From Candidatus Rikenella faecigallinarum (lineage in GTDB: Bacteria; Bacteroidota; Bacteroidia; Bacteroidales; Rikenellaceae), in contig DXHL01000019.1 of assembly GCA_019113395.1 (NCBI GenBank), positions 1 to 64,000 on the forward strand: 64,000 nucleotides of DNA, written 5' to 3'. The notes under the pieces were generated by a model that made no database searches, was not told where the DNA came from, and was given only the letters and a program-made list of their open reading frames with translations. Below, in pieces: positions 7,987-22,813 of this stretch; the first letter of the stretch is position 1, and every line of letters begins with the position of its first letter. Position numbers and translations under genes: made by a program.

Positions 7987-8047
7987 CGGCGCGCCAAGCA
8001 CGGAGCGAGGCGGGGTTCTGTGGTGTGGGGGCTTTGGGTGACGCCGA

Positions 8048-8074: not shown

Positions 8075-8119
8075 TATGAAGTGCGTGGATAAGCGAGAGT
8101 ATTCTTCGAAGGATATTGG

Positions 8120-8290
8120 ATTACAGACCAACGAACGTTCTTTTCGGGATGGGGGATTTACGGAGGAGGGACATAAATGGGTTGAGCATAGACCCGCTGC
8201 CCTTCTCGGCTGAATACCGTTCGGCGCCCGGCGCCGCATCCCGCGACATACCAAAAGAACCAGCAAGCCCGCATGGTTTCCTTTTGCTTT
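8120..8290 (+). ncRNA. Candidate structured RNA upstream of the 6S-like gene
   Basis: A long helix is visible: GTTCTTTT (8137-8144) pairs exactly with AAAAGAAC (8253-8260), and CGGGATG (8145-8151) pairs exactly with CATCCCG (8237-8243), leaving a one-sided 9-nt bulge at 8244-8252. Inside are a GGCGC/GCGCC hairpin near 8223-8235 and a GGGTT/GACCC hairpin near 8179-8195. No reading frame covers it. It could be an independent small RNA, part of the zapA 3' region, or part of a longer 6S precursor. Boundaries are approximate and the strand is chosen from the flanking genes. Confidence 0.45.
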
Positions 8291-8319
8291 GCGATACTCA
8301 ACACTAACTACTTGGAGCC

Positions 8320-8490
8320 AATCACTCTATGGACGTAGGGCAGGCCTCAGCCCCTTTCGGGGGGTTCCCGCACTCCAAACGTCGCCCGGTGCGACGGCGG
8401 GACGTTGGAAGCCCCAAATTCACAGGCAGCTCCACCCATGATTTGACCGGAGTTTTCGTCAAACCATCCAAAGGAGACCATGCTTTTTTT
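8320..8490 (+). ncRNA. ssrS: Candidate 6S RNA
   Basis: 6S RNA binds the housekeeping RNA polymerase by mimicking an open promoter. The expected architecture can be drawn. A closing stem joins CTCTATGG (8325-8332) with CCAT (8464-8467) and GGAG (8473-8476). A terminal arm joins TCC-AACGTC (8374-8383) with GACGTT-GGA (8401-8409). On the 3' side of the central region there is a small hairpin, TTTGAC (8442-8447) with GTCAAA (8458-8463), the position where 6S RNAs carry one. Seven T residues at 8484-8490 could end the transcript. A position between zapA and rny is, as I recall, usual for Bacteroidetes 6S genes. A covariance-model search against the Rfam 6S families would decide. Confidence 0.6.
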
Positions 8491-8588
8491 GTGCCCTGTC
8501 GCAGCGACCGCCCGAAAGCCCCGACAGCGCCCACAACCGAACAAACCACAAAAACTGAATATAAACCAAATACTTAACTAACACACGA

Positions 8589-10130
8589 ATGGACATTCTG
8601 ATTATAGTGTTAAGTGCCGTAATCGCCGCAGCCGTGGTGGGTTATGCCACTTACATGTTTACCTACAAATCGACCGAGAAGCGCCGCACGGCTATCCTTC
8701 GGGAGGCTGAGCAGGACAGCGAGATGCTGAAAAAGGAGAAGATTCTGCAAGCGAAGGAGAAGTTCCTGCAGATGAAGGCCGAACACGAGAAACAGGTGGC
8801 TGACCGTACAGCCCGCCTGCAACAGATTGAGTCGAAGATGAAGCAGCGCGAGACGCAGCTGAATCAGGAGAGCGACCAGCTGAACAAACGAATCAAGGAG
8901 TTCGAGGGGACACGGGCGAAGGTTGAGAGCGAATTGCAGTCACTGGCCGGACGTAAAGAGGAGCTCGACCGCCTGACCAAAGAGCAGATAACCAAACTGG
9001 AACAGATTAGCGGTCTTTCGGTCGAAGAGGCTAAGGCCCAGCTGATTGAACAGTTGAAGTCCGAGGCGAAGACCGAGGCGATGAGCTACATCAACGACAT
9101 CATCGACGAAGCCAAGATGACCGCCAACAAAGAGGCCAAGAAGATTGTGGTGCAGAGCATCCAGCGCGTAGCGACCGAGACGGCCATCGAAAACTCCGTG
9201 ACGGTATTCAACATCGATTCGGACGAGGTGAAGGGGCGTATTATCGGGCGCGAAGGGCGCAATATCCGCGCCCTGGAGGCGGTTACCGGGGTGGAAATTA
9301 TTGTGGATGACACGCCTGAGGCCATTATTTTGTCAGGGTTTGACCCCGTGCGGCGTGAGATAGCGCGCCTGGCGCTCCATCAACTGGTGACCGACGGACG
9401 TATCCACCCGGCCCGCATCGAAGAGGTGGTGGCCAAAGTGCAGAAGCAAATCGAAGAGGAGATTGTCGAAGTGGGGAAACGCACGGCCATCGACCTGGGG
9501 ATTCACGGTCTCAACTCGGAACTTATCCGTCTGATTGGGAAGATGAAATACCGTTCGTCTTACGGCCAGAACCTCTTGCAACACTCCCGCGAAGTGGCCA
9601 ACCTCTCCGGGATTATGGCGGCCGAACTGGGTCTGAACCCGCAGTTGGCGCGTCGGGCAGGGTTGCTGCATGACATCGGGAAAGTGCCCGATGACGAACC
9701 CGAACTGCCGCACGCCATTATCGGGATGAAACTGGCCGAGAAATTCAAGGAAAAACCCGAGGTAGTGAATGCTATCGGTGCTCACCACGACGAAATCGAA
9801 ATGACGACGCTGATTGCCCCGATTGTACAGGTGTGCGACGCCATTTCGGGGGCTCGTCCGGGTGCACGACGCGAAGTGGTCGAAAGTTACATCAAACGTC
9901 TCAAGGAGATGGAAGAGCTGGCCATGGCTCACCCGGGTGTGCTGAAGACCTATGCCATTCAGGCGGGTCGCGAGTTGCGTGTGATTGTCGGCAGCGAAAA
10001 GATTAGCGACCAACAGGCCGAAATCCTCTCGCACGACATTGCCAAGAAGATTCAGGACGAAATGACCTACCCGGGTCAGGTGAAGATTACCGTAATTCGG
10101 GAAACGCGTTCAATCAGCTACGCGAAATAG
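8589..10130 (+). CDS. rny: Ribonuclease Y
   Basis: A 513-residue membrane-anchored endoribonuclease that starts mRNA decay. The order is standard: one N-terminal TM helix (about residues 3-25), a long charged coiled coil to about 195, a KH RNA-binding domain with [15 protein letters not shown], and an HD hydrolase domain whose metal pair is H361-D362 (LLHDIGK). The C-terminus ends in the usual [12 protein letters not shown]. Length and domain spacing match the family. Its nearest upstream feature is the 6S-like RNA; a long terminator follows. Confidence 0.96.
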
Positions 10131-10189
10131 GTTCCTGCAGGGAGTTTATGGGTGGGGATGGTGTAGCCTCCCCGTCCTCCCGATATAGC

Positions 10190-10233
10190 GCAGGGGTTGG
10201 AATACGACGGTATTCCAACCCCTGCTGTTTTTG
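10190..10233 (+). terminator. Intrinsic terminator after rny
   Basis: A perfect 16-bp stem (10190-10205 with 10210-10225), a 4-nt loop, then TGTTTTT. The preceding CGATATAGCGCAGG at 10181-10194 is identical to a word in the dispersed repeats at 79-92 and near 43703. Confidence 0.9.
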
Positions 10234-10249
10234 CGATATGTTCCGCCCA

Positions 10250-10900
10250 CTACTCAAAAAGGTCCAACACCGTCAGCGGAGAGGCCAGATGCACCGTTCG
10301 TATCCCCAGCCGTTCTGCGCCCTCTGTATTGGGACGGTTGTCGTCAATAAAGAGGGTATGCGCGGGGTCTATCTCCGCCTGCTCCAACACCGCCCGATAG
10401 ATAGCCTCATCGGGTTTGCGCAGGTGCATCGCATCGGAGTAGAAACAGGCCTCGAAATAGCTTTCAAAGGTTCGTCCCGTCGGATTTTCCCGATTAAACC
10501 GCTCCACAAAGCACTCCCGATGGGGCAGATTGGTATTGCTCAGCAGAAAGAGCCGATAGCCGCTCCGCTTGAGATTGTCGAGCAACTCAAAGCGCCGCCA
10601 GTCGTAATCCAGCAGGAGGGCGTTCCACGCAGCCAACAACTCTTCGGCCGAGGGTTTTCGCCATCCGTTGGGAACGCACTGCTGCAACCGTTCGACAAAC
10701 TCCGCTGTCGTCAGCTGGCCCAACTCCAGCTCCAAAAAGATTCCGCTGTTATGGGGGTGAATCTCCTTATCCTGGAGCCCCGTCAGCCCCAAAAGCTGAA
10801 AAGCGCGAACGGTGCGCTGAATGTCAATGTCCAGCAGCACCCCGCCAAAATCGAAAATCAGGTTCTGAATATCCGTTGCAAAAATGGGTTTCAGTTGCAT
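10250..10900 (-). CDS. HAD-family phosphatase, YihX-like
   Basis: A 216-residue soluble HAD-superfamily hydrolase. Motif I is in IFDFGGVLLDID, where the first Asp is the nucleophile. Motif II is in FLLSNTN, and the acidic motif IV is LFIDDNRPN, followed by a helix with GAERLGIRTVHL. The helical cap and overall length match the YihX group of sugar-phosphate phosphatases such as alpha-glucose-1-phosphatase; the substrate cannot be told from sequence. The start is the ATG at 10900, because the 20 codons upstream are not family-like. It faces rny and can share the terminator between them. Confidence 0.85.
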   Translation of the reverse strand: MQLKPIFATDIQNLIFDFGGVLLDIDIQRTVRAFQLLGLTGLQDKEIHPHNSGIFLELELGQLTTAEFVERLQQCVPNGWRKPSAEELLAAWNALLLDYDWRRFELLDNLKRSGYRLFLLSNTNLPHRECFVERFNRENPTGRTFESYFEACFYSDAMHLRKPDEAIYRAVLEQAEIDPAHTLFIDDNRPNTEGAERLGIRTVHLASPLTVLDLFE

Positions 10901-10991
10901 TGTTTCATTCTTTTGAATCCGAATCCTTCCGTTGCGGCCCCCGACACGCACGCCCGTCATACGGACACTCTCTCCCCGTCCCGCAGCCTGA

Positions 10992-11023
10992 TTTGGAATT
11001 TAGGAGGTAAAAATATATTTTTG
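10992..11023 (+). promoter_or_regulatory. Promoter of the tRNA gene
   Basis: TTTG at 10992-10995 and TATTTTTG at 11016-11023 fit the -33 and -7 boxes with 20 nt between them. The start would be near 11030, about 35 nt before the mature tRNA. Confidence 0.65.
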
Positions 11024-11065
11024 CAAACACATTCTCAAATCCTGCACCGTCAGGAGCGCGAGAAA

Positions 11066-11140
11066 GGGCCTATAGCTCAGTTGGTTAGTAGCACCTGACT
11101 CATAATCAGGGGGTCGCTGGTTCAAGCCCAGCTGGGCCCA
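11066..11140 (+). tRNA. tRNA with CAU anticodon (Ile2 or elongator Met)
   Basis: A full cloverleaf: the acceptor GGGCCTA pairs with TGGGCCC (11133-11139), the anticodon arm is CCTGA-CTCATAA-TCAGG, and the T arm is GCTGG-TTCAAGC-CCAGC. The T arm resembles the lysidine-modified tRNA-Ile(CAU) of E. coli, but an elongator Met identity cannot be excluded. CCA is not encoded. Odd feature: the D arm reads GTTAGTAGC where such tRNAs normally have GTTAGAGC. The extra base leaves only three pairs in the D stem. Confidence 0.9.
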
Positions 11141-11147
11141 CAAACGC

Positions 11148-11191
11148 CAGTCGGGGTGGCAGATTGCAATCTGCCACCCCGACTGTTTTTT
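11148..11191 (+). terminator. Intrinsic terminator after the tRNA
   Basis: A perfect 38-bp palindrome (11148-11166 with 11167-11185) followed by six T residues. Confidence 0.92.
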
Positions 11192-11259
11192 CCTCCGGCC
11201 ACAAAGCTCTCAAACACATTTTACCATTTTTCGCAGTCCGGATAACCGGATTAATTTAT

Positions 11260-11267
11260 TACCTTTG
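11260..11267 (+). promoter_or_regulatory. -7 box of the structured leader RNA
   Basis: TACCTTTG is an exact TAnnTTTG match, lying 500 bp before the first coding gene of the cluster. A start near 11274 is expected. Confidence 0.65.
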
Positions 11268-11273
11268 AAAGCA

Positions 11274-11650
11274 CATACAGACATAGCATAGCGTTTTTGA
11301 TGTACGTTCTCCGGTTCGTGTAAATCTGGACAATTTACCCGTTTGTAATTGCGGAGAGTGTGCGTAAGCGCTCACGTCTTGGTATATCTTCAATTCGTCT
11401 CTTCGGCGCCCTCTGCGCCCCCCGGTGACGTGTACCCCGGAGATAGAAATAGGCGTGGGCTGTTTACGCTTACTTGGCAATTACAAGGCAGTCCAGAGCC
11501 ACACAAACCCGGGTAAGCAAGATAAACAGCCTCACGCTTTTTTCATTGTACACGGCAATATTACAGGTTTTCATACGAGTGGACAACATCTCCCGTCGCA
11601 CACTTTACCAATGTGTGACCAGAGTTGTATTTGGTACAGAAAACCTATCC
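11274..11650 (+). ncRNA. Candidate structured RNA or leader, family unknown
   Basis: No gene is visible between 11192 and 11767, but several helices are. (1) CTCCG 11309-11313 with CGGAG 11352-11356, enclosing GTAAAT/ATTTAC (11320-11325, 11333-11338). (2) An 11358-11375 hairpin. (3) GGCGC/GCGCC at 11405-11419. (4) A long stem of GCGTG plus GGCTGTTTA (11453-11466) with TAAACAGCC plus CACGC (11523-11537), one bulged base, with GCTTAC/GTAAGC nested inside, followed by six T residues (11538-11543). (5) After the T run, AGGTTTTC (11565-11572) with GAAAACCT (11639-11646), enclosing ACAAC/GTTGT and CACAC/GTGTG. The T run may end a 270-nt RNA or act as an attenuator for the operon. It does not look like tmRNA, RNase P, SRP RNA or a riboswitch known to me. 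Confidence 0.55.
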
Positions 11651-11767
11651 GTTCATATAGTTCGGCCTGTTTTATGATTCACGCCGAGACAAAACAAGTT
11701 ACTTCGCATAACGAATGCTTGGGGAGCGCCCGAAATCATCCATCAAACCACATAGAATATCGAGCCC

Positions 11768-12988
11768 ATGAAACAACGTTCACTTCTAATCGTTTTGGCC
11801 TGTCTGGGGGCAATAGTCATCCTTTTCCTGCTGTTTGCGGGCGGTGGCAACAATCAAGTTGTCATCCAGTGGGAGGCAGCCTCTCCCGCCCCGTCTCAGG
11901 AGTCTCCGTGTACCCTGAAGGTGTATGTCGAAAACTCGGGAAGCATGAATGGTTACATGCATGCCGGGACACAACTGACCGACGTGCTGTATGACTACGT
12001 GAGTTTGTTGGGGACAAGCGTCGATACCGTCGAGCTCAACTACCTGAACACCGAGGTGGTCGAGTACCCCCAGGACCTGAAACACTTTATCGGGACCCTG
12101 ACACCGACGGCGTTTCGAGCCGTGAAGGGGAACAAAAGCAACTCGGACATCGCCCAAATGTTGGAGACGATTCTCGCACGCACCGATGCCAACACCCTCT
12201 CGCTGTTTGTTTCCGACTGCATTTTGGATGTGAAGCAGGGCGCTACGGCCAACTACCTGGTCAATCGTCAGATAGACATCCGCAACGCCTTCAGCCGCAA
12301 GTTGCACCAGCAGCCCGACCTGGCGACAGTGGTGCTGCCACTGATGTCGGACTTCACGGGCTACTACTATTACGACCGCGGGAGTGAATACCTCCAATCG
12401 GCCGAGCGTCCCTACTATTTATGGCTTATCGGTCCGCAATCGCTGTTGGCACGCTGCAATCGGCTTCATCCGTGGAGCAACCTGCTGACCGACAAGCAAC
12501 GGCTGCTGACCTTCTCGACTCCGGTAGCCGCGATTCCCTTTACCATCACCAACCAGTTTGGCAAAAACAGGGAGGGACACTGTGTATGCCGTCCCGACCG
12601 CCGGGGACGTTACCAGTTTCAGGTGCATGCCGACCTGTCGGGCACCCTGCAGGAGGAAAGTTTGCTGCTCAATCCGGCATATTATCGGAAAACCGGTCAG
12701 TTGTTGCAAATAGAGGCCGTCCGTCCCATTCAGGACAGCCGTTCACCCTATACCCATATCCTGACAATGTCGCTCGCTGAGACGGTCACGCCATATGGTG
12801 AAAAAATCGAACTGGGGGCAGCCCCATTCCCCGCCTGGGTCGAACAGATGAATGACGACAGCGGTGCCGACATCCAGTCCAACATGGGCAAAACCACCGG
12901 TATCAAATACATTCTGCAGGGGGTTGGCGAGGCCTACAAGGGCTATACCACCATGGGTTCCATCCCCTTTACCATCAACAAGCAATAA
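11768..12988 (+). CDS. Membrane-anchored vWA-like protein, first gene of the cluster
   Basis: A 406-residue protein with an uncleaved-looking N-terminal membrane helix (about residues 5-24), so most of it would be periplasmic. Residues 48-160 look like a von Willebrand A fold: a beta strand leading into ENSGSM (55-60), a helix, a strand, an SNSDIAQML helix, then SLFVSD ending in D150. In a normal MIDAS site the first motif is DxSxS; here Glu replaces the Asp, so metal binding may be altered. The C-terminal half (about 220-400) is beta-rich and unknown. I cannot name a closer family. It opens an eight-gene run; the next gene starts 30 bp downstream. Confidence 0.75.
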   Translation: MKQRSLLIVLACLGAIVILFLLFAGGGNNQVVIQWEAASPAPSQESPCTLKVYVENSGSMNGYMHAGTQLTDVLYDYVSLLGTSVDTVELNYLNTEVVEYPQDLKHFIGTLTPTAFRAVKGNKSNSDIAQMLETILARTDANTLSLFVSDCILDVKQGATANYLVNRQIDIRNAFSRKLHQQPDLATVVLPLMSDFTGYYYYDRGSEYLQSAERPYYLWLIGPQSLLARCNRLHPWSNLLTDKQRLLTFSTPVAAIPFTITNQFGKNREGHCVCRPDRRGRYQFQVHADLSGTLQEESLLLNPAYYRKTGQLLQIEAVRPIQDSRSPYTHILTMSLAETVTPYGEKIELGAAPFPAWVEQMNDDSGADIQSNMGKTTGIKYILQGVGEAYKGYTTMGSIPFTINKQ

Positions 12989-13018
12989 GTCTCATTCCAC
13001 TAATAAATTCAACGTCTT

Positions 13019-13486
13019 ATGGGAGATATCTTTGGCAGCCTTTACTGTTCGCTGTTCGAAAACCTGTTCGGTCTGGACCTGGCCGATTATCTGTGGGGGT
13101 TGTCTTCCCCCTACCAAACCACAAACATGTACCTGGGAATTGGTCTTACGATGACAGGTATCAGTTTGGCGATGGTTCTGCTATACTACTACTTCATAAA
13201 CCCGGCCCATCCGCGTTGGAGCAGCTGGTTCGGGTGGCTGGTCTATCTGGTTGTGAATGCGGGGCTGAACTTTCTCGTCGGGTGGCAATGGACGCTGAAC
13301 CACTACTATGCCGGCAAAATGGTTGCCCCCGATGCCACCACCGGCATGGAGGTGGCCCTGAACATCGAGCCGAGTGACTGCGTCGCATTCGGAGTCGCGA
13401 ACATGTTGCTCTCCATCCTCTTCTTTTTTGTGCTCTCGATGCTGCTGAAGTGGAAAAGCTCCAACAACTTCCACTCGCCGTTTTAA
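13019..13486 (+). CDS. Small three-helix membrane protein
   Basis: A 155-residue integral membrane protein of no family I recognise. Hydrophobic segments lie at about 37-60, 68-92 and 121-143; the stretch between the second and third carries HYYAGKMVAPDA and an acidic NIEPSD. The N-terminal 30 residues are amphipathic with several aromatic residues. It sits between the vWA-like and tubulin-like genes with 30 and 45 bp gaps, so it is probably a membrane subunit of the same assembly. Confidence 0.7.
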   Translation: MGDIFGSLYCSLFENLFGLDLADYLWGLSSPYQTTNMYLGIGLTMTGISLAMVLLYYYFINPAHPRWSSWFGWLVYLVVNAGLNFLVGWQWTLNHYYAGKMVAPDATTGMEVALNIEPSDCVAFGVANMLLSILFFFVLSMLLKWKSSNNFHSPF

Positions 13487-13531
13487 TCGATTCACCACCT
13501 CATCTCACCTGAAAAATTTACTGTTATAAGT

Positions 13532-14917
13532 ATGTCTAAACTATACATTTTCGGGATTGGCGGCACCGGTTCCCGGGTGCTGCGTTCACTGACCATGATG
13601 CTGGCCGCCGGGGTGCGTGTCGAGGCTTCGTCCATCGTGCCGATTATCATCGACCCGGATGCCAGTAATGCCGATATGACCCGCGCGGTCTCGCTGCTGA
13701 ACCTCTACCGCGACCTTCGGGGAGCGTGCGGTCCGCAGGGCTTTTTCCAGCAGGAGGTGGAGGCGGCTCTGCCGGGATACCGGTTGCCGATTCAGGATAC
13801 GGACAACAAACGGTTCTCGCAATTTATCGATGCCGGTACGATGAGTCCGGCGAATCAGGCGTTGGTGCGGTTACTCTTTTCGGAGCACAACCTGAAGGCT
13901 CAGATGGAGGTGGGTTTCAAGGGGAATCCCAATATCGGCAGCGTCGTGCTGAGCCAGCTGGTCCACTCTCCGGAGTTCGAACAGTTTGCCAACTCCTTTG
14001 CCCAGGGCGACCGCATCTTTATCATCAGTTCGATTTTCGGAGGAACGGGTGCCAGCGGTTTCCCGCTGTTGCTGAAGACACTGCGAACAGGCAACGATTT
14101 TCCCAACTACAATCTGGTGAATCAGGCTCCTGTTGGTGCCGTCACCGTCCTCCCCTACTTCAAGGTGCAGCCCGACGAGGAGAGCGAAATCGACTCTTCG
14201 ACCTTTATCTCCAAGGCCAAATCGGCGCTGGCCTACTACGAAGACAACGTCCGCAACCAGGTCAATGCCCTCTATTTCCTGGCCGACGACATGACCAACA
14301 CGTACGACAACCACGAAGGGGGCACCACCCAAAAGAACGATGCCCACCTGATTGAGTTGCTGGCGGCCAACGCCATCGTGGACTTTTGTGAGGGCGACTA
14401 CCCGGTGGGACAGACCGCCTACAAAGAGTTCGGCATCGACGACAAACAGACCTCTCCGGTGACCTTCTCGTCGTTCTATTCGGGCACTGCCCGGACCCTG
14501 CAGCAACCGCTGACCCAGTTTCTGCTTACGGCCAACTGTTTCGAACAGCAGTTCGACCACATCACCTCGCAGGGACTGAGCGCCAATGCCAAACTCCATC
14601 TGGATGCCAATTTCTACCGGAGTCCCTTTGTCAGCAACCTGCAACAGATGCTCACGGAGTATCGGGAGTGGCTGCGCGAGATGAAGGAGAACACCCGTTC
14701 GCTCGACTTGTTCAACCTGGAGACGGACAAGCCGTTCGAGGTGGTCACGGGTGTCCAGGCCAGCCGCGTCATGAGCCTCAAGTCGAACTATACCCTCATA
14801 TTCGACCGCCTAAACTCGGCCGCATGCAAAATTCGCACCGAGAGCCAGGCCTCATCCCTGGTGGCACTCTACTACCAGGCCACCCAAAAATTGGTTCACG
14901 AAAAATTTAAGCTTTAG
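13532..14917 (+). CDS. Tubulin/FtsZ-superfamily GTPase-like protein
   Basis: A 461-residue soluble protein. The N-terminus has a Gly-rich nucleotide loop, FGIGGTGSRVLRSL (7-20), and an acidic strand end, IIIDPDASN (38-46). The tubulin signature is clear at 170-176: FGGTGASGFP fits the GGGTG[SA]G loop that contacts the GTP phosphates. The C-terminal half is unlike FtsZ and lacks its NKxDxxxL catalytic loop in recognisable form. It may therefore bind GTP without forming ordinary FtsZ filaments. It resembles the bacterial tubulin-like proteins found outside cell division. It is followed after 5 bp by the actin-fold gene, implying translational coupling. Confidence 0.75.
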   Translation: MSKLYIFGIGGTGSRVLRSLTMMLAAGVRVEASSIVPIIIDPDASNADMTRAVSLLNLYRDLRGACGPQGFFQQEVEAALPGYRLPIQDTDNKRFSQFIDAGTMSPANQALVRLLFSEHNLKAQMEVGFKGNPNIGSVVLSQLVHSPEFEQFANSFAQGDRIFIISSIFGGTGASGFPLLLKTLRTGNDFPNYNLVNQAPVGAVTVLPYFKVQPDEESEIDSSTFISKAKSALAYYEDNVRNQVNALYFLADDMTNTYDNHEGGTTQKNDAHLIELLAANAIVDFCEGDYPVGQTAYKEFGIDDKQTSPVTFSSFYSGTARTLQQPLTQFLLTANCFEQQFDHITSQGLSANAKLHLDANFYRSPFVSNLQQMLTEYREWLREMKENTRSLDLFNLETDKPFEVVTGVQASRVMSLKSNYTLIFDRLNSAACKIRTESQASSLVALYYQATQKLVHEKFKL

Positions 14918-14922
14918 CCCCT

Positions 14923-17900
14923 ATGTCCAAGATATTTCGCCTCTACCCCAACGGCACCAATACATACCGTGACTGGCAATCCACCGCTCAGTTTCCCTAC
15001 AACTCCACCGCCCGCGACCAGATAGAGAATCCCGACGGCGCCGCCGCCCGGACGGAAATCACCTCCATACCCTCGCCTTTTGCCCGCATTGCGTTGGTGA
15101 AGACGGCCTTTCAGGAGGTCTGCAAGTCGGGCTTGGAGGGCCATACGATTTTTCATAAGATGGTCTCCCACTCACTGGATGTCGGGGAGTTGTTTTTCAA
15201 TTTCGACAAGTACAGCCACGATTTCGAGATTATCGCCTGGGATACTCATGCGCGGATTGAGGAGTTGTGCCGTTCACCCCATCCGGGACATACGTATTTG
15301 GGGAATGTATTGAAAACCTACCTGGCTGCCGACAGTCGCACCTTTAACTTCGAAAAGCTAAGAACCATCTACCTGCTGAACGACAAACGAGGCGAGGATA
15401 TGATGAATATTGTCGGAGCGACCTCTCCGGCGACGCTGTTTGTCAGCACGGCCAACGATTTCAGCGCCGTGGGTCATCGTCCCTGTTTCGGACAGCACAA
15501 ACCGTTCGGACAGAGCGACTTTTTGCCCCTCTACAAGCGTGACTTCGAGTATGTGAAATATTGGTTCTACCTGCGTAACCGGCACGCCAGTTTCGCTACG
15601 CATTTTCCCGAGGTGAACGAGTATCTGGATGTGACTTTCCAGAAAATCACCGATTCGCAACGTGAGGAGCTCCGCAGTTTTCTGCAGGAGAGCAACACCC
15701 TGCCGCAACAGTATGCTGCGATTCAGTTCGGGTTTGACGGGGGTTCGTATCAGGTTGAGGTGCTGGGGGAACTGCTCTACAAGACGGCCCCGAAGCCCAT
15801 TACGCAAAGTGACTTCTTTATTCAGCCTACGCGTCCGCAGGCTCCGGGGAGTCGGTTGCCCTTGGTGCTTCCGGTGGAGGACGGGAATACCTATGCCCGT
15901 CTGCAATACACCTATGGCACATGGGGCGACAAGCAGAAGGCGCCCTATGTGGACCGGGAGTCGGACCTCAACAAGCGATTGTTGCCATTCGACAACACGC
16001 CTCACCCTTACCTGACCATTTCGGATTTTCTGGAAGATACGCTGATAGAGCGCGACCGGGTATGGGAGCGCGACGCCTTTTTCGACGGCAACCTCACCGA
16101 CATGAACGAGGGGAAGGCCTATTTGCTTCCCTTGAAGCCGCTCTATTTCGACTATTTCACGCCGGAGACCCTGACCGAAGGGTTCCCCGGCGGGGTGAAG
16201 GCCATCGAGATGGAGTGGTTGGCGGGCGGCAGCGGCGTGACCGTAACCCTGCGGATACCCATCCACGGAAACGGACAGGTGCGGTACATGGAGTATTCGC
16301 GCAAGTACTACAAAAACAGACCGGCCGACATCAGCGCCCAGAAAAACGAGGGGGATATACAGACCTGTGATTTCTCGGGGTTTCTGATGCCCAACCTGCG
16401 TTTTGCGGACCCCTCGCAGGCCGTATACCGCATCGGTTGCCTGTACGAAAAGGCCAATACGGTGGAGATGACCTTCTACAACGGTCGTCAGGCTTTGACG
16501 GAGGTGGCCGTAGACCATCGGAACACCATTCAATCCGAAGCATACCTGATTAAGACCTACTCTCTCGAAAAACAGAATTTTGAATATATACAGGTTCGTC
16601 TGCCCCACACGCTGGCCACGGGGGTGATTCTGCCCCGTTTCCGCCAACAACAGTCCATCGATTCGTATGATTTTGCCGTCGACCTCGGGACTACCAATAC
16701 CCATATCGAGTACCGCAAGAATGGCAAAGCCGAAAGCCAGCCTTTCGATTACTCCTCTACAGACTCGCCCATTAGCCATTTTTTCCGCATAGCTGTAAAA
16801 ATAACCGGAGAGGGGAATTCAATTCTAGAATTTACGGATAGTCTGGTTCGCGAACGTATTCAGCAGGATTTTCTGCCCGACACGGTAGGAGAAGGTGATT
16901 TTCGATTCCCCATGCGGACTGTATTGGCACATGATAAAACCATGGACTGGACCAAGGCCTACCGTCCGTTGGCAACGGGCAACATTCCGATGACCTACAA
17001 CAAATTACATAAGCCTGAGTATGACCAAACCGATTACAACATCAAATGGGGAGATACGGCACAGACCCGCATGATGGAGGCCTATATCGATACCCTGATG
17101 TTGATGTTGCGCAACAAGGTGGTGATGAACAACGGCAATTTGGCCGGAAGTACCGTGCGGTGGTTCTATCCGCTCAGCATGACCCCCCACCAGCGTTCAC
17201 GGATGCGCCAGGCTTGGGACAGTGCCTTCCAACACTATTTCACCGACCGAGCCTCGACCCTGGAGATGACCGAATCGGAGGCCCCGATTCAGTATTACTT
17301 CCACACGAACGCCACGGCCAAAGAGATTGTCAATGTCGATATCGGGGGCGGCACGACCGACATCGCTTTTGCCAACGGGCAGGAGATTACGCAGGTCACT
17401 TCGTTCCGATTCGCCTCGAATGCCCTCTTCTCCGATGCCTTCACAACCACCCAGCTCTACAACGGGATTGTCAACCGTTACAGCAATAAACTGAGACAAG
17501 TTGCAGTGAAAGCAAACCCGGAGATGCAGTCAGTCTTTGCCGATGGCGACAACCGGGATACGGCCAATATGGCCTCACTGCTCTTCTCGCTGAAAGAGCT
17601 CTCCACACTCCGCGCCAGACTAAATCCGAAAGAAATCGACTTCCACGAGCTGCTGGCTCAAGATGCCCACTTCAAGATTGTCTTTGTACTCTTCTACACG
17701 GCGATTATCTACCACATTGCCCAAATCATTCGGGTGACCGACACTCCCCTGCCCCGTCACATCTCGTTTAGTGGAAACGGGAGCAAAGTGGTCACCATTT
17801 TGACCGGTGACGTGCATATCCTCGCGGAATACACGAAACTGATACTCCAAACCGTGTCAGGCAAAACGTACGGTCCCAATGAGAGTCTGGAGCTGCTCGG

Positions 17901-18366
17901 GCTCGACGCCAAAGCGCAACCCAAAGAGTCTACCTGCAAGGGGGGACTTCTGGCTGCTGCCGATGTACAGAGCAAGAGCATTCACGGAAAAAACATTATT
18001 CTGAAGAGCTCGGGCGATGCGTTGATTGACCGGAATGACACCTTTGCGAAAATCAAGGACAACCCAGCCTACATGGAGCAATCCATCGCGGCGGTCGAAC
18101 ACTTCCTGGACGTAACGTTCGACACCTTCAACAGCGAGTTTTCATTCCATAACGCTTTCGGATGCAGCCGCGAGTCCATCGACATCGCCAGGGCACTCTG
18201 CAAAAAGGACCTGCGGACCTATCTCACCAAAGGGTTAGAACAGTTGTGCCAGCAATCGGGCGACAACGAGACCGTCAACGAAACCCTCTTTTTCTATCCC
18301 ATCAAGGGGGTTCTGCAGGCTGTTTCTACGGAAATCGACAAATCATTATCTCCATCCGCTGAATAA
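14923..18366 (+). CDS. Giant protein with C-terminal actin/Hsp70-fold ATPase domain
   Basis: A 1147-residue protein. Residues 1-570 form an unrecognised mixed domain. From about 580 an ASKHA (actin/Hsp70) ATPase fold follows: phosphate-1 motif DLGTTNTH at 587-594, phosphate-2 motif IGGGTTD at 807-813, and an adenosine-binding motif SFSGNGSK at 948-955. The final 150 residues are helical. There is no signal peptide or TM helix, so it is cytoplasmic. Large proteins of this shape are sometimes annotated as SrfB-like; I see a resemblance in plan but cannot establish homology. Its neighbours suggest a filament or ATP-switch component acting with the tubulin-like protein. Confidence 0.78.
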   Translation: MSKIFRLYPNGTNTYRDWQSTAQFPYNSTARDQIENPDGAAARTEITSIPSPFARIALVKTAFQEVCKSGLEGHTIFHKMVSHSLDVGELFFNFDKYSHDFEIIAWDTHARIEELCRSPHPGHTYLGNVLKTYLAADSRTFNFEKLRTIYLLNDKRGEDMMNIVGATSPATLFVSTANDFSAVGHRPCFGQHKPFGQSDFLPLYKRDFEYVKYWFYLRNRHASFATHFPEVNEYLDVTFQKITDSQREELRSFLQESNTLPQQYAAIQFGFDGGSYQVEVLGELLYKTAPKPITQSDFFIQPTRPQAPGSRLPLVLPVEDGNTYARLQYTYGTWGDKQKAPYVDRESDLNKRLLPFDNTPHPYLTISDFLEDTLIERDRVWERDAFFDGNLTDMNEGKAYLLPLKPLYFDYFTPETLTEGFPGGVKAIEMEWLAGGSGVTVTLRIPIHGNGQVRYMEYSRKYYKNRPADISAQKNEGDIQTCDFSGFLMPNLRFADPSQAVYRIGCLYEKANTVEMTFYNGRQALTEVAVDHRNTIQSEAYLIKTYSLEKQNFEYIQVRLPHTLATGVILPRFRQQQSIDSYDFAVDLGTTNTHIEYRKNGKAESQPFDYSSTDSPISHFFRIAVKITGEGNSILEFTDSLVRERIQQDFLPDTVGEGDFRFPMRTVLAHDKTMDWTKAYRPLATGNIPMTYNKLHKPEYDQTDYNIKWGDTAQTRMMEAYIDTLMLMLRNKVVMNNGNLAGSTVRWFYPLSMTPHQRSRMRQAWDSAFQHYFTDRASTLEMTESEAPIQYYFHTNATAKEIVNVDIGGGTTDIAFANGQEITQVTSFRFASNALFSDAFTTTQLYNGIVNRYSNKLRQVAVKANPEMQSVFADGDNRDTANMASLLFSLKELSTLRARLNPKEIDFHELLAQDAHFKIVFVLFYTAIIYHIAQIIRVTDTPLPRHISFSGNGSKVVTILTGDVHILAEYTKLILQTVSGKTYGPNESLELLGLDAKAQPKESTCKGGLLAAADVQSKSIHGKNIILKSSGDALIDRNDTFAKIKDNPAYMEQSIAAVEHFLDVTFDTFNSEFSFHNAFGCSRESIDIARALCKKDLRTYLTKGLEQLCQQSGDNETVNETLFFYPIKGVLQAVSTEIDKSLSPSAE

Positions 18367-18379
18367 TTCCCTGAACGCC

Positions 18380-19216
18380 ATGAAAAAAATCATATATCAC
18401 AGTTTTCTGTTGTTGTGGGTGTTGTGGGTCGGAACGGGTGCTGGCGACGCAAAAGAGCGTCCGTCAACCCCACTCCCCGACACCACCGCCGAACAGCCCC
18501 AAACCTCCGCAGCAGAGACCGTCCGGCCCGATTCCGCATCCACTGCCATCGCACCGACAGCCCTCGTTTCGCCCGCTCCATCTGCCGAAAGAGCCACGTC
18601 TCGGCCATTGGCAGCCTGGGTTATACCGGCCGTTGCCTGCGTACTGTTTTTGCTGTTGTTGCTCATCATTGTCAGTCTCTCCAAGATTCGCACGCTGAAA
18701 CAACGCCTGCGCAAACTGGAACATTCCAGAGAGGCTCCCCTGAGAAAATGGGAAGAGAGCCGACAACAGATAGAGGGTAAACTGCGGCTGCAAGAGGAGC
18801 AACTTCGAAGGTTGCAACTCGAACAACAATCCTTACACAGCAAGCTGGAGACTCTCTCAACGACAGCGCCACCGCAGGCTGAGTTGCAAACGCCCCCGGT
18901 ACCCACCCCTCCTCCTGTTTCCCGGGAGGCCTACTTCGGCCGCAATGTACAACAGTATTTCACCTCCGTATCCAATAAGTACGAGAACACCAGCGTCTTC
19001 AAAGTGACCTTCCAATCCGAAAACGAGGGGACATTCGTACTGGTGGACTTGAAACAACTGGCCTACGTTGCCGAAATCAGCGAAGTCATCCAATACGACG
19101 GGAACTGCGACATCAGACAGGCCCGTCAATTCACCCTTATCGAGCCCGGACACGTGGTTCGCTCGGGCGAGTGCTGGAGAATCGACCGACCGCTTCGCAT
19201 ACACGTATCCATCTAA
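18380..19216 (+). CDS. Single-span coiled-coil membrane protein
   Basis: A 278-residue protein with a visible modular plan: a signal-like hydrophobic start (1-24), a Pro/Thr/Ser-rich linker (28-75), a TM helix (77-100), a charged coiled coil (102-158), a proline-rich spacer (163-181), and a compact 95-residue C-terminal domain with NEGTFVLVDL and a GECWRI ending. The linker would be periplasmic and the coil cytoplasmic. No family is recognised. It may couple the membrane complex to the cytoplasmic actin-like or tubulin-like partners; that is inference from topology and from its position between them and the motor genes. Confidence 0.7.
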   Translation: MKKIIYHSFLLLWVLWVGTGAGDAKERPSTPLPDTTAEQPQTSAAETVRPDSASTAIAPTALVSPAPSAERATSRPLAAWVIPAVACVLFLLLLLIIVSLSKIRTLKQRLRKLEHSREAPLRKWEESRQQIEGKLRLQEEQLRRLQLEQQSLHSKLETLSTTAPPQAELQTPPVPTPPPVSREAYFGRNVQQYFTSVSNKYENTSVFKVTFQSENEGTFVLVDLKQLAYVAEISEVIQYDGNCDIRQARQFTLIEPGHVVRSGECWRIDRPLRIHVSI

Positions 19217-19235
19217 CCTATTCTTACACGCCGCT

Positions 19236-20819
19236 ATGTCAACACAGGCACAAACACTTTTGATTATTGCCGCCGTAGGCGCTCTGCAGTTGTGGGTTTT
19301 TGTCCGCAACTGGTTCCGCATGGCCACCCTGAGGAATATTTTTCGTCGAGCCGACTCCTGGCGGGTCCTCAAGGACGCCAACGGTCTGGTTAGCGGTATT
19401 GAGGGTGAGGGCAACCGCGTCTATCAGGAGATACAACACGCCATCAACCAGTACCTCTCCAACAACCGCGGGTCGGTCATAGACTTTCAGTTGCTGAAGG
19501 ATGCCGTGGACCGGCACTTCAACTCCATCGAGGAGGATATCAATGCCCAAAGTCCCGTACCGATTGTCTTCGGGCTTGGGGGCACGATGCTGGGGGTTAT
19601 CGTGGGTCTTTCGACCTTCGACATCAACACCATCCTCAGTTCACAACCCGCCACTGCGGAAGCCTCCATTCAGATGGATGAAGCCGTTCACAACGTGGAT
19701 AATCTGCTGGGGGGGATAGCCATTGCCATGGGGACCAGCATTTGCGGGATTGTGCTGACCCTGATGGGGTCACTGCTCTACAAACATACCAAGCAGCGGG
19801 CCGAGCAGGGTAAGAACCGTTTTTTGGCATGGATGCAGGCCGAGTTGTTGCCGGCACTGCCGACGGATACGTCGAAAGCGCTGGTTCAACTGGTTCACAA
19901 CCTCAACGCGTTCAACACGACCTTTCAGGAGAACACGGCCCATTTGGGCAGCACACTGGGACAAATCAACGAGGCGTATGCGGTTCAGGCCGACATTGTG
20001 CGGACCATCAAGGAGATGGACATCAACAAAATGGCAACGGCCAACGTAAAGGTTCTCAAGGAGTTGTCGGCCAGCACCGAAAAGTTGGAGCAGTTCAACA
20101 CCTATCTGAGCAGTGTACGGGGGTATACAGATGCCATTTTGCAGTTCCACAGTCAGTTTAACAAGGAGAGCGAGCGGCTGCACCTTTTAGAGGAGCAGGT
20201 GAGTACCCTGCAGTGGATACGTGATTTCTTCCAGGCCGAATTGACCCAAATCAACCAGCGCAAAGGCGCCATCAGCAAGAGCACTGCCGATATTGACGAT
20301 ACGCTGCAAAAAGCTTTGGGTGGGTTACAGAAGCACAGCGAGACGCAGTTGCAGGAGATTCAGACCATGGTGGTGGACCAGGTGGATGGCATTCAGCGGT
20401 TGATACGCGCTCAGGCCGAGAGTTTTGAGGAGGCGAGTCGCCGCATGATGGTTGCTTTCAACGAGCAGATGCAGCAGATGCCGCGCTTGGCAGACCACAT
20501 CGAGGCCATCAGTCGGATACCCGAAGCCCTCACCCGTTTGCAGCAATCCATCCACGACTCGCAGGCCGAGCTCCATCATCAGCTGTTGGGCGGCATGCAG
20601 CAATTGATGCAGCAACAGTCCCAGTTCCTGCAACAACAGGTGCACCACATGCAGCAGGCTCAGACCAAAGCCGTCGAGGCTGTCGCTCCCCGCCTTGTCC
20701 TGCCCCGATGGATGAAGTGGGCCTTTGCAGCCGTGGGAGTGATTGTGACAGGGAAAATCGTTTTGGATGTGGTTTTGCTGTTAGTCACGCCTGGGGAGGC
20801 TGCTGCGGGCATGCCTTAA
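19236..20819 (+). CDS. MotA/TolQ/ExbB-like channel protein with long coiled tail
   Basis: A 527-residue membrane protein. TM1 lies at about 6-26. The MotA/TolQ/ExbB signature pair follows: TM2 at 108-128 (IVFGLGGTMLGVIVGLSTF) and TM3 at 157-182 (GGIAIAMGTSICGIVLTLM). Residues 190-480 are a long helical, Gln-rich coiled region predicted to project into the cytoplasm, and a last hydrophobic segment lies at about 494-516. ZorA of the Zorya defence system has the same idea of a MotA core plus long tail, but not, as far as I know, the extra C-terminal helix. The true start is ATG 19236; an upstream in-frame extension overlaps the previous gene and is not protein-like. Confidence 0.82.
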   Translation: MSTQAQTLLIIAAVGALQLWVFVRNWFRMATLRNIFRRADSWRVLKDANGLVSGIEGEGNRVYQEIQHAINQYLSNNRGSVIDFQLLKDAVDRHFNSIEEDINAQSPVPIVFGLGGTMLGVIVGLSTFDINTILSSQPATAEASIQMDEAVHNVDNLLGGIAIAMGTSICGIVLTLMGSLLYKHTKQRAEQGKNRFLAWMQAELLPALPTDTSKALVQLVHNLNAFNTTFQENTAHLGSTLGQINEAYAVQADIVRTIKEMDINKMATANVKVLKELSASTEKLEQFNTYLSSVRGYTDAILQFHSQFNKESERLHLLEEQVSTLQWIRDFFQAELTQINQRKGAISKSTADIDDTLQKALGGLQKHSETQLQEIQTMVVDQVDGIQRLIRAQAESFEEASRRMMVAFNEQMQQMPRLADHIEAISRIPEALTRLQQSIHDSQAELHHQLLGGMQQLMQQQSQFLQQQVHHMQQAQTKAVEAVAPRLVLPRWMKWAFAAVGVIVTGKIVLDVVLLLVTPGEAAAGMP

Positions 20820-20870
20820 CGAGGGGAACCGTACCGAAAGACTCCACGACGGCAAATATTGATTCACCTT

Positions 20871-21533
20871 ATGGAAAACAACACCAAAGGCTCCTATTTC
20901 TGGACCAGTTATTCCGACCTGATGACCAGCCTGTTTTTCATCATGCTGGTTCTGTTTGTGCTGATGATAGCGCTCCTGTACCAGCAGGTCCGCATCACCC
21001 AGCGCGAACGCGACCTGATAAGGAACCGGCTGCGGGAGATTGAGCAAATCATCGAATCGACCAAAAATCTGGACAAGAAATACTTTCGCTATGAGGCAGC
21101 CTACAAAAAATACGTACTGAACATTGCCGTGTCGTTCCCGACCGGGGAGAGCCGTATCGACAGGCTGCAAGACCCGGAGAGCCTGGGCAGACTGCGGGAG
21201 GCCGGACATGCCATTCAGCAGTTTCTGGCACAGAACGACACGACCCAATACCTGTTAATCATTGAAGGTCAGGCCTCTCGTGACCGTTATCTGCGCAATT
21301 ATGAGTTGAGCTACGAGCGAGCGTTAGGGTTATTGCGCTACTGGGCCGAGGAGAGTCCTCTGGAGGGGAATCCGCTGGGTCGTAATTGCGAAATTCTGAT
21401 TGCGGGCAGCGGCGACAATACCATTGAGACCGGGGCCTGGCGGGAACAGGGTGACGAGGCCAAGAACCAACGTTTTCTGATATACCTGCTGCCCAAAAAC
21501 ATTATCCCCGAGAAAGACCATGACTTCCACTAA
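20871..21533 (+). CDS. MotB/OmpA-like stator protein
   Basis: A 220-residue protein with one TM helix at about 14-38 that begins SYSDLMTSLFFIML. D16 corresponds to the proton-carrying Asp of MotB (motif YADLMT) and to its ZorB counterpart. A coiled linker (40-75) leads to an OmpA-like domain with LLIIEGQASRD and a YELSYERALGLLRYW helix, which normally binds peptidoglycan. With the preceding MotA-like protein it should form a 5:2 ion-driven rotary unit. The start is ATG 20871; a TTG at 20859 is weaker. It overlaps the next gene by 14 bp. Confidence 0.85.
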   Translation: MENNTKGSYFWTSYSDLMTSLFFIMLVLFVLMIALLYQQVRITQRERDLIRNRLREIEQIIESTKNLDKKYFRYEAAYKKYVLNIAVSFPTGESRIDRLQDPESLGRLREAGHAIQQFLAQNDTTQYLLIIEGQASRDRYLRNYELSYERALGLLRYWAEESPLEGNPLGRNCEILIAGSGDNTIETGAWREQGDEAKNQRFLIYLLPKNIIPEKDHDFH

Positions 21534-22281
21534 CCGCCGCTGGAGCTGCGGGCTTCTTTTGGCCGCTCTGTTGCTGGTCAGTTGCGCCCACCGTTCGGGT
21601 AAGGTGCGCACGTCGCGCAGCATACGTTCTGCCGCACCGGCACAGGTTGCCCCGCCCCGCACTCCGACGGCCACACGCACGGCAACCATACAGACCGAAC
21701 CGGCCGTCTCCTCCTCCCGTACCCGGTTGCAGGGGCATGAGGTGTTCCAACGCTACAACCAGGCGGTGTTTGTCGTGTACTCGACGGACGGAACGGCAGC
21801 GTATCAGGGGTCTGGCTTTTTTATTGACAACAGCGGGCTGGCCGTGAGCAACGAGCATGTCTTTCACGGTACCCTGCAGGATACACGCATCAAACTGGTC
21901 GGCCAGCAACAGACTTTCCCGGTGACCGAGATTATTGCCCGCAGTGCCGAACAGGATTTCATTCTTTTCCGCGTGGGTTATGCGAGCCGCTGCTACCTTC
22001 CGTTGGCTCAGCAGAAACCGAAAATCGGCGAACGGGTGTATGCCATCGGCAGCCCGCGAGGGTTGGAGAATACCTTTTCGTCGGGTGAGGTGTCGCAGTG
22101 GCGGGACGACTGTCTGATGCAAATCAGCGTCTTGATTGACCATGGCAGCAGCGGAGGGGCCCTGATTAACGAATATGGCGAGGCGGTTGGCATTACTTCC
22201 GGGACGTTTTACGACGGCTCACAGGCCAACCTCAACTACGCCTGGAGCATCGAGGTACTCCGCCCCTACCTCTCCTTTTGA
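21520..22281 (+). CDS. Lipoprotein trypsin-like serine protease
   Basis: A 253-residue protein with a lipoprotein signal peptide (lipobox LVSC, C22), then a Pro/Thr/Arg-rich linker to about residue 70 and a chymotrypsin-fold domain. The catalytic triad is intact: H113 in SNEHVF, D146 in EQDFIL, S211 in HGSSGGAL. It looks like the protease core of HtrA/DegS but has no PDZ domain. It should sit on the periplasmic side of a membrane. The overlap with the MotB-like gene argues that it belongs to the same operon, perhaps processing a partner. No terminator is visible after it. Confidence 0.82.
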   Translation: MTSTNRRWSCGLLLAALLLVSCAHRSGKVRTSRSIRSAAPAQVAPPRTPTATRTATIQTEPAVSSSRTRLQGHEVFQRYNQAVFVVYSTDGTAAYQGSGFFIDNSGLAVSNEHVFHGTLQDTRIKLVGQQQTFPVTEIIARSAEQDFILFRVGYASRCYLPLAQQKPKIGERVYAIGSPRGLENTFSSGEVSQWRDDCLMQISVLIDHGSSGGALINEYGEAVGITSGTFYDGSQANLNYAWSIEVLRPYLSF

Positions 22282-22422: not shown

Positions 22423-22430
22423 TATCTTTG
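22423..22430 (+). promoter_or_regulatory. -7 box for the LytTR gene
   Basis: TATCTTTG, an exact TAnnTTTG match, with the ATG at 22451. It separates this pair of genes from the upstream cluster. Confidence 0.6.
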
Positions 22431-22450
22431 CTTGCAGAGAGCAACCCCCA

Positions 22451-22813
22451 ATGGATAAACATCTAATCATAGCCACCGCAAACGACCTGGTTCGGATAGC
22501 ACCGGACCGTGTGGTCTATATTTCGTCGGACGGGAACTATTCGACCCTGATTCAAGCCGACGGCGAGACGCGGCTGCTCACCTTCCAGCTCGGTCAAATC
22601 GAACGGATGATTGCCGACCAGTTGGGTTCCGTCGGGAACTGTTTTATCCGCATCGGGAAATGCCTGATTATCAATCGAAGCTACATCTATTACATCAACA
22701 TTCCGAAGCAGCGGCTCACCTTGTCGGACTGCCGCAGCGTGAACTTCACGGTTTCCGCCTCGCGTGAGGCGTTGAAGCAGCTCAAGGAGTTGATGGAGAA
22801 GGAGGGCCAATGA
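22451..22813 (+). CDS. Stand-alone LytTR DNA-binding protein
   Basis: A 120-residue protein that is only a LytTR domain: DRVVYISSDGNYSTL, then the strand-turn FIRIGKCLIINRSYIYYI, the recognisable LytTR pattern of a conserved Arg/His, an Asn-Arg and a Tyr. LytTR domains bind promoter direct repeats. There is no receiver domain, so its activity must be controlled by level or by a partner. The next gene starts one base after its stop, and that gene encodes a membrane protein. One-component LytTR-membrane pairs are often regulator and inhibitor; whether that holds here is a guess. Confidence 0.85.
   Translation: MDKHLIIATANDLVRIAPDRVVYISSDGNYSTLIQADGETRLLTFQLGQIERMIADQLGSVGNCFIRIGKCLIINRSYIYYINIPKQRLTLSDCRSVNFTVSASREALKQLKELMEKEGQ

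What the first reader, a model, noticed from the sequence alone, without database searches (positions are those of the whole stretch)
11768..22281. Eight-gene cluster joining a vWA-like anchor, tubulin-like and actin-like NTPases, a MotAB-like motor and a lipoprotein protease
Seen: eight genes on one strand with gaps of 5-51 bp and one 14 bp overlap, each with readable motifs (tubulin GGTGASG loop, actin-fold DLGTTNTH / IGGGTTD / GNGSK, MotA/TolQ helix pair, MotB-type Asp, HDS protease triad). Known: MotA/MotB pairs couple ion flow to rotation and recur in Zorya defence (ZorAB) and flagella; vWA proteins often assemble complexes. Inferred: one envelope-spanning, energised machine with two cytoskeletal-type NTPases. 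I do not know a described system with this set. Possible jobs include phage defence, surface transport or envelope maintenance; nothing here decides among them.
Basis: partly seen in the sequence, partly recalled or inferred. Interest (0 to 1): 0.85.

Follow-up and report, generated by a model that had tools for sequence, protein, structure and literature searches.

The report
Motor-bearing tubulin–actin envelope gene cluster
Eight neighbouring genes in this gut-type Bacteroidota genome encode a tubulin-like protein, an actin-like protein, a proton-motor pair and cell-surface partners that travel together between distant bacteria; the core was predicted by computer in 2010 but never tested, and this motor-and-protease version, probably an exchangeable stress or phage-defence machine, appears undescribed.

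Summary
The eight genes are real and in the stated order, and they are not a chance group. The tubulin-like (C) and actin-like (D) genes are adjacent in 38 of 40 homologous loci, and every one of 21 Bacteroidia genomes with D also has C. The fixed core is A (periplasmic vWA protein), B (small membrane protein), C (Tubulin_2/FtsZ-like GTPase) and D (actin-fold ATPase); it also occurs on cyanobacterial plasmids. Downstream modules are swapped: a ZorAB-like motor pair (F, G always together, 17 loci), a lipoprotein protease (trypsin-type here, retropepsin-type elsewhere), TerD proteins, or DO-GTPase/GAP1. The core matches the in-silico FtsZl1-vWA-OmpA system (Makarova & Koonin 2010) and overlaps Kaur et al. 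2020, so "no described system" is only partly right; I found no description of the motor + actin-like + protease form. The cluster alone fills an 11.3 kb lineage-specific segment between tRNA-Met and a LytTR gene; relatives place it beside integrases, relaxases and phage genes. Best reading: an envelope-spanning, proton-driven, exchangeable stress/conflict machine. Families are firm, the machine likely, the role unproven. It is not Zorya: ZorC/D/E are absent.

The parts
11066..11141 (+). tRNA-Met; left edge of the lineage-specific segment (homology of same-genus genomes stops at 11142)
11148..11185 (+). strong intrinsic terminator (17-pair stem + T run) after the tRNA; closes the upstream unit
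11186..11767 (+). ~580 bp leader/intergenic region; one Bacteroidota-type TAnnTTTG match at 11260 (chance level over the region); no Rfam match
11768..12988 (+). gene A: N-terminal membrane anchor (lipobox Cys in most homologues, not here) + periplasmic vWA-like domain, metal motif variant ExSxS
   Evidence: the listed VIA-align matches are vWA-fold proteins, best Z 8.0
13019..13486 (+). gene B: small inner-membrane protein (about 3 TM in homologues)
13532..14917 (+). gene C: tubulin/FtsZ-superfamily GTPase of the Tubulin_2 (FtsZ-like) kind; the cell has a separate canonical FtsZ
14923..18366 (+). gene D: 1147-aa protein; residues ~579-1021 have an actin/MreB/FtsA/Hsp70-type ATPase fold, N-terminal ~575 aa unassigned
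18380..19216 (+). gene E: signal peptide, one TM (~73-95), coiled coil, conserved C-terminal domain, probably cytoplasmic
19236..20819 (+). gene F: MotA/TolQ/ZorA-like motor subunit with long coiled-coil tail and an extra C-terminal TM (ATG at 19236; upstream TTG 19068 would overlap E)
20871..21533 (+). gene G: MotB/ZorB-like subunit: TM with invariant Asp, periplasmic OmpA-like peptidoglycan-binding domain (alternative TTG start 20859)
21520..22281 (+). gene H: lipoprotein trypsin/HtrA-like serine protease, triad intact, no PDZ domain found; retropepsin lipoproteins occur in this role in other loci
22423..22813 (+). TAnnTTTG promoter-like site and LytTR-domain gene; right edge of the lineage-specific segment (homology of four family genomes begins at 22445-22457)

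Best explanation
A motor-bearing member of the vWA/FtsZ-like-1 (Tubulin_2) class of accessory systems. Inferred architecture: G anchors to peptidoglycan and, with F, forms a ZorAB/MotAB-type 5:2 proton motor. F's long tail, the conserved inner domain of E and the small membrane protein B link the motor to a cytoplasmic assembly of the tubulin-like GTPase C and the actin-like ATPase D. The vWA protein A and the protease H face the periplasm. Inferred mechanism: disturbance of the envelope (phage entry, membrane or wall damage) is sensed at the periplasmic face (A, G); proton-driven movement of F switches the C/D assembly at the inner membrane; the output is periplasmic proteolysis by H and/or reshaping or sealing of the membrane, protecting the cell or killing it. 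SHOWN: the families, the fixed core A-B-C-D, the obligatory F+G pairing, module swapping, mobility. INFERRED: that the proteins form one complex, the direction of signalling, the trigger and the output. Confidence by step: family assignments ~0.9; one trans-envelope machine ~0.7; conflict/stress rather than housekeeping ~0.55.
For: Core co-occurrence and order: C-D adjacent in 38/40 loci, A-like gene upstream in 33/34; F and G together in 17 loci, never singly; all 21 D-bearing Bacteroidia genomes carry C. Fold/family: Tubulin_2 in 16/17 C members; D's ATPase domain matches MreB, Foldseek 8e-7, VIA Z 15 over 275 residues, with profile hits to MreB, Hsp70 and FtsA; A matches vWA folds; G's best solved relative is type I ZorB, 7.5e-20. 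Motor Asp, polar-ring and LSxxRA residues invariant. Proteolysis as a recurrent output: trypsin lipoprotein in 4 loci, retropepsin lipoprotein (FxxDTGAS) in 5, with similar C..(R/S)SGR lipoprotein N-termini. Accessory and mobile: ~6% of Bacteroidia, 0 of 7 other same-genus genomes; precise 11.3 kb segment; integrase, relaxase, terminase and tail-fibre genes beside copies; plasmid-borne cyanobacterial copies; one copy between PADLOC NERD+UvrD and PDC-S14 hits.
Against: No physical interaction, trigger or phenotype is known. Most loci are not in obvious defence islands: 3 of 10 flanking genes tested hit PADLOC, and many flanks look like housekeeping genes. The IS-disrupted copy in G013 (L011) and the decaying copy in G490 (L032) show dispensability, not function. 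AlphaFold models were shallow (6-7 sequences, pLDDT 50-57). No catalytic T7-type residues were identified in C, so GTP hydrolysis is assumed. The motor is absent from about half of the loci, so it is not essential to the core's job.
Confidence: 0.5

Rival explanations
1. Envelope maintenance or membrane-remodelling/vesicle machine (the original FtsZl1 proposal): C and D polymerise at the inner membrane and, energised by F/G, shape or repair the envelope; A and H process periplasmic clients. Not a defence system.
For: Makarova & Koonin inferred membrane remodelling for the FtsZl1 set. Peptidoglycan-binding G, periplasmic A and H, a YkuD L,D-transpeptidase in one locus, HtrA/DegS-like protease.
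Against: Sporadic distribution and mobile/plasmid/prophage placement are unusual for maintenance; the cell keeps its own FtsZ.
Confidence: 0.28
2. A Zorya-type anti-phage system in the strict sense.
For: G and F match ZorB/ZorA models (PADLOC ZorB1 5e-15, ZorA2 2e-6) and the type I ZorB structure.
Against: No ZorC, ZorD or ZorE among the nine genes scanned; effector side replaced by actin-like/tubulin-like proteins and a protease; the core exists without F/G.
Confidence: 0.03
3. Surface transport, secretion or motility apparatus (GldLM/AglRQS-like), with the cytoskeletal NTPases as moving or assembly elements.
For: 5:2 motors power gliding and secretion; an actin-like ATPase (PilM) is part of type IV pilus machines and appears among D's fold matches.
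Against: No outer-membrane pore, pilin, secretin or secreted substrate recognised in or near the clusters; motor lost in many copies while the core stays.
Confidence: 0.08
4. Maintenance/partition system of the mobile element (TubZ/ParM-like).
For: Tubulin-like and actin-like NTPases segregate plasmids (established knowledge); copies sit on plasmids and integrative elements.
Against: No centromere-binding adaptor gene recognised; membrane, peptidoglycan-binding and periplasmic parts have no role in partition; most copies are chromosomal.
Confidence: 0.03
5. Chance neighbours with separate jobs.
For: None beyond the patchy distribution.
Against: Order and linkage kept across deep C-protein divergence and phyla.
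Confidence: 0.01

Closest known systems
FtsZl1 (FtsZ-like 1, Pfam Tubulin_2 PF13809) system, Makarova & Koonin 2010 (PMC2875224)
   Same: Divergent FtsZ/tubulin GTPase next to a vWA protein, membrane proteins and an OmpA-family protein; patchy and wide distribution; Bacteroides and cyanobacteria among members
   Different: Here C is short (461 aa; most 2010 members carry a long coiled coil). No P-loop GTPase or Ser/Thr kinase. The paper's main text does not mention an actin-fold partner, a MotA/TolQ-type gene or a lipoprotein protease (its supplement could not be read)
GTPase-centric (DO-GTPase/GAP1) conflict systems with tubulin and HSP70, Kaur et al. 2020 (PMC7159879)
   Same: Tubulin + HSP70/actin-fold + vWA logic. 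Loci L012/L013 carry the same A-B-C-D core with DO-GTPase2 and GAP1-N2, which unites the two literatures
   Different: The window has no DO-GTPase or GAP1; its energising module is a proton motor; no ZorAB mention in that paper (the one 'Zora' is an author name)
Zorya types I/II (ZorAB), PMC11890865
   Same: F/G are ZorA/ZorB-like: 5:2-motor residues, long cytoplasmic tail, peptidoglycan-binding ZorB-type domain
   Different: ZorC/D/E absent; F has an extra C-terminal TM in the window's clade; linked to tubulin/actin proteins
MreB/FtsA/Hsp70 actin-fold ATPases
   Same: D residues 579-1021 share fold and phosphate/adenosine motifs
   Different: ~575-aa N-terminal region and C-terminal helices without assigned relatives
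DegS/HtrA periplasmic proteases
   Same: H: trypsin-fold protease domain with intact triad
   Different: Lipoprotein, no PDZ found, encoded within the cluster

Membership tests
FtsZl1/Tubulin_2 system | Tubulin/FtsZ-superfamily GTPase of the Tubulin_2 family | tested here: met
   PF13809 in 16/17 members, best 2e-10; the window protein itself scores 19.8 bits, below the 27-bit cut-off; FtsZ profile match
FtsZl1/Tubulin_2 system | Adjacent vWA-domain protein | tested here: met
   vWA-fold matches (Z up to 8, shallow model); no Pfam vWA hit; gene upstream in 33/34 loci
FtsZl1/Tubulin_2 system | OmpA-family peptidoglycan-binding protein (several genomes) | tested here: met
   gene G, OmpA/MotB matches
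FtsZl1/Tubulin_2 system | Distinct P-loop GTPase and/or Ser/Thr kinase in the operon (frequent, not universal) | tested here: not met
   none among the eight genes; DO-GTPase2 present in relatives L012/L013
FtsZl1/Tubulin_2 system | C-terminal extended coiled coil after the FtsZ domain (majority of members) | tested here: inconclusive
   C is only 461 aa; no coiled-coil predictor was run
Kaur et al. GTPase-centric conflict system | DO-GTPase plus GAP1 genes | tested here: not met
   absent from the window; present with the same core in L012/L013
Zorya | ZorA-ZorB motor pair | tested here: met
   ZorB1 5e-15, ZorA2 2.3e-6; ZorB structure 7.5e-20; ZorA structure weak, 3e-3
Zorya | ZorC+ZorD or ZorE effector genes | tested here: not met
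   no hit among nine proteins
Zorya | Demonstrated anti-phage activity | not testable with these tools
   needs experiment
Actin/Hsp70/FtsA superfamily (gene D) | Phosphate-1, phosphate-2 and adenosine motifs in an actin fold | tested here: met
   motifs invariant in 17 members; MreB matches by Foldseek and VIA; outside the cluster the D profile hits FtsA-sized ORFs at D positions ~774-926
vWA (gene A) | MIDAS DxSxS...T...D | tested here: inconclusive
   ExSxS in most, Asp in distant members; Ser57 and Asp150 invariant; metal binding untested

The most novel reading that the evidence does not exclude
A new class of anti-phage/conflict machine in which a Zorya-type proton motor drives a paired tubulin-like/actin-like NTPase assembly instead of ZorC/D/E, with a dedicated periplasmic protease as output; one member of a modular superfamily whose vWA-tubulin-actin core is plugged into motors, proteases, TerD or GTPase modules.
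Probability: 0.33. Interest if true: 0.88.

Novelty: new variant of a known kind. Interest (0 to 1): 0.64.

Why it matters
It ties together three separately described things: the untested FtsZl1 operons (2010), the GTPase/HSP70/tubulin conflict systems (2020), and Zorya-like motors. The first two share one fixed four-gene core, and the third turns out to be one of its exchangeable modules. A system with both a tubulin-like and an actin-like NTPase coupled to a proton motor would be unusual in any cell. It is compact (11 kb), naturally delimited and can be moved, so the long-open question of what the FtsZl1 systems do becomes directly testable.

Tried and rejected
Zorya membership: rejected, no ZorC/D/E. 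Virulence factor SrfB for D: no SrfB family hit. Strict empty site: not obtained; same-genus genomes are rearranged between the tRNA-Met and the LytTR block, so the two edges come from different genomes. Foldseek on the A model gave nothing below 1e-3; only the second-look aligner showed vWA. D-profile hits in 384/395 genomes are, apart from the 21 cluster-bearing genomes, matches of the ATPase motif region in FtsA-sized ORFs and were not counted as homologues. One C hit (G760, E 5e-4, 51 positions) was judged spurious. Sigma-70 promoter scan and TAnnTTTG counts were at chance level. No phage record holds C. The search could not be centred on Cyanobacteria. The supplement of the 2010 paper (lists of associated families) could not be read, so it may already list D or F as an unannotated family. 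Defence-island statistics were not computed; only ten neighbours were scanned. A last PADLOC scan failed on a wrong coordinate and was not repeated.
Full report
OBSERVATION. I call them A-H. G+C (54.8%) is close to the window mean (56.2%), so composition gives no sign of recent arrival. The genome is 2.07 Mb in 38 contigs, 98.65% complete, with one copy of D and a canonical FtsZ elsewhere. The family contains an uncultured Alistipes (Rikenellaceae) record, L009/G092.

WHAT THE PROTEINS ARE. C: weak Tubulin_2 and Tubulin hits in the window protein, but 16 of 17 homologues hit Tubulin_2 (best 2e-10) and 13 hit Tubulin; the profile finds FtsZ structures (5.6e-4); T1- and T4-like glycine loops are invariant. 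D: the motifs DLGTTNT, DIGGGTTD and SGNGSK are conserved in 17 homologues including cyanobacterial ones. The profile finds MreB (1.4e-6), Hsp70 and FtsA structures. A shallow AlphaFold model (6 sequences, mean pLDDT 50) still gives MreB as the best Foldseek match (8e-7) and Z 15.1, rmsd 4.4, 275 aligned residues by VIA-align over residues 580-1015. The first ~575 residues remain unassigned. A: no Pfam vWA hit in 15 members. The model (pLDDT 57) has no significant Foldseek match, but the listed VIA-align matches (Z up to 8.0) are vWA-fold proteins such as pilus adhesin PitA, Rpn10, Ku, alpha-2/delta-1 and CMG2. The metal motif is ExSxS in most members. F and G: ZorA/ZorB-like (PADLOC 2e-6 and 5e-15). 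G's best solved relative is type I ZorB, PDB 8VVN (7.5e-20). The transmembrane Asp and LSxxRA residues of G and T117/S168 of F are invariant. H: trypsin-like, nearest HtrA/HhoA/DegS. E: signal peptide, one TM, coiled coil and a C-terminal domain conserved in 12 loci. B: small multi-TM protein.

CLUSTERING. With the C profile, 23 of 395 sampled Bacteroidia genomes hit, one of them spurious; with the single window sequence, 13 of 395 in a phylum sample. In the window's family 7 of 268 hit, and none of the 7 other same-genus genomes does. All 21 genomes with a D homologue are C-positive; the other D-profile matches cover only the ATPase motif region and fall in FtsA-sized ORFs. In 40 loci, C and D are adjacent in 38, an A-like gene lies upstream in 33 of 34 with room, and F and G occur together in 17 loci and never singly. 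Exceptions: G595 has C and D on different contigs, and L032 is a decaying copy without D. On plasmids of Picosynechococcus and Gloeothece the order A-B-C-D or B-C-D is kept.

MODULES. The fixed core is A-B-C-D. Downstream there is (i) E-F-G with or without a protease; (ii) E-Y (WG-repeat protein) with retropepsin (L031, L117) or with YkuD L,D-transpeptidase (L034); (iii) X plus TerD-type proteins (L036, L037, L045, L115; TerD confirmed for L037); (iv) X plus DO-GTPase2 and GAP1-N2 (L012, L013). A tree of 36 C proteins has two deep groups. The motor label needs 6 changes (3 forced by well-supported branches; shuffled mean 11.4), so modules are gained or lost repeatedly, though not at random. 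The protease slot holds two unrelated catalytic types: trypsin-like H in the window, L009, L010 and L011, and a retropepsin with FxxDTGAS in L031, L117, L118, L108 and (truncated) L032. Both stand behind similar lipoprotein N-termini (C..[RS]SGR[RK]). I read this as functional replacement, which makes proteolysis a real part of the system (inference).

LOCATION AND MOBILITY. Upstream, same-genus genomes share the HAD gene and tRNA-Met, and homology ends at 11142, the 3' end of the tRNA. Downstream, homology of four family genomes starts at 22445-22457, the LytTR gene. The segment between holds only the eight genes, their leader and the tRNA terminator. In L009 the cluster stands on the corresponding side of the same LytTR block and is preceded directly by a tyrosine integrase. 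In G038 an integrase, an AAA ATPase and a UvrD-type helicase stand there instead; in G027 and G009, what look like housekeeping genes. Elsewhere a relaxase and integrase precede the cluster (L045), terminase and resolvase genes stand near it (L046) and a tail-fibre gene stands near it (L047). In L048 the cluster lies between PADLOC NERD+UvrD and PDC-S14 hits. The G013 copy (L011) is broken by insertion-sequence-type genes.

WHAT IS KNOWN. Makarova & Koonin 2010 (PMC2875224) described the FtsZl1 family with vWA, GTPase and OmpA-type neighbours and proposed membrane remodelling; a Bacteroides caccae protein is in their alignment. Kaur et al. 2020 (PMC7159879) described GTPase-centric conflict systems with tubulin, HSP70 and vWA parts. 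Neither main text mentions ZorAB-like motors with this core. I found no experimental study of these systems in the library searched. L012/L013 show that the 2010 and 2020 systems share one core.

MECHANISM. Established for Zorya: ZorAB is a 5:2 ion-driven motor, and peptidoglycan binding, ion flow and the ZorA tail are all important for defence (PMC11890865). By analogy, F/G here should convert proton flow into movement of F's tail in response to the envelope, passed through E and B to a C/D assembly, with A and H acting in the periplasm. Patchy, mobile, modular distribution favours an exchangeable conflict or stress function over housekeeping. Envelope remodelling remains the main rival. Component identities and linkage are shown; complex formation, trigger and output are inferred.

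VERDICT. Real, conserved and, as far as I could find, untested; a new variant (proton motor + actin-like ATPase + dedicated protease) of an in-silico-described kind. Not Zorya by membership, though its motor probably works like ZorAB.

Noticed in passing
window 29833-37272: RND-type efflux operon (outer-membrane, pump and adaptor proteins at 30464-36247, minus strand, recognised by eye) with a TetR-like gene (29833-30525); an AraC-like gene may lie at 36421-37272. In G007 this block directly follows the same tRNA-Met, inverted.
   Followed up: partly
L011 (G013), about 3500-8300 in reversed coordinates: The A and C genes of this copy are each interrupted by insertion-sequence-type (rve) genes while B and D-H look intact.
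   Followed up: partly
L045 (IMG/VR contig), 3935-18464: Relaxase, integrase and an A-B-C-D core followed by X and two TerD-like genes: an integrative/mobilisable element carrying the TerD version.
   Followed up: partly
L046, 16-18123: Phage-like contig with terminase and resolvase near a very divergent core whose D is 1504 aa; the place of this branch in the tree is unsure.
   Followed up: no
upstream of the LytTR gene (window 22445) in L009, L131 and the window: The spot looks like an insertion hotspot: integrase + this cluster (L009), this cluster (window), or integrase + AAA + UvrD-type helicase (G038).
   Followed up: partly
L031, L117, L118, L108, L032 compared with window 21520-22281: Retropepsin-type and trypsin-type lipoproteins share a lipobox followed by (R/S)SGR(R/K), as if protease domains were swapped behind one anchor.
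   Followed up: partly
window 11768-12988: The lipobox Cys of A, near-invariant in homologues, is replaced by Gly25 in the window; its anchor probably became a transmembrane helix.
   Followed up: no
L038 (G409): A distant family carries core + E + F, with the ZorB-like G upstream of A: a separate arrangement, possibly an independent recruitment of the motor.
   Followed up: no
window 7552-7986 and 8589-10130: ZapA-like small gene and ribonuclease Y (both by eye), an ordinary conserved stretch shared with same-genus genomes up to 10130.
   Followed up: no
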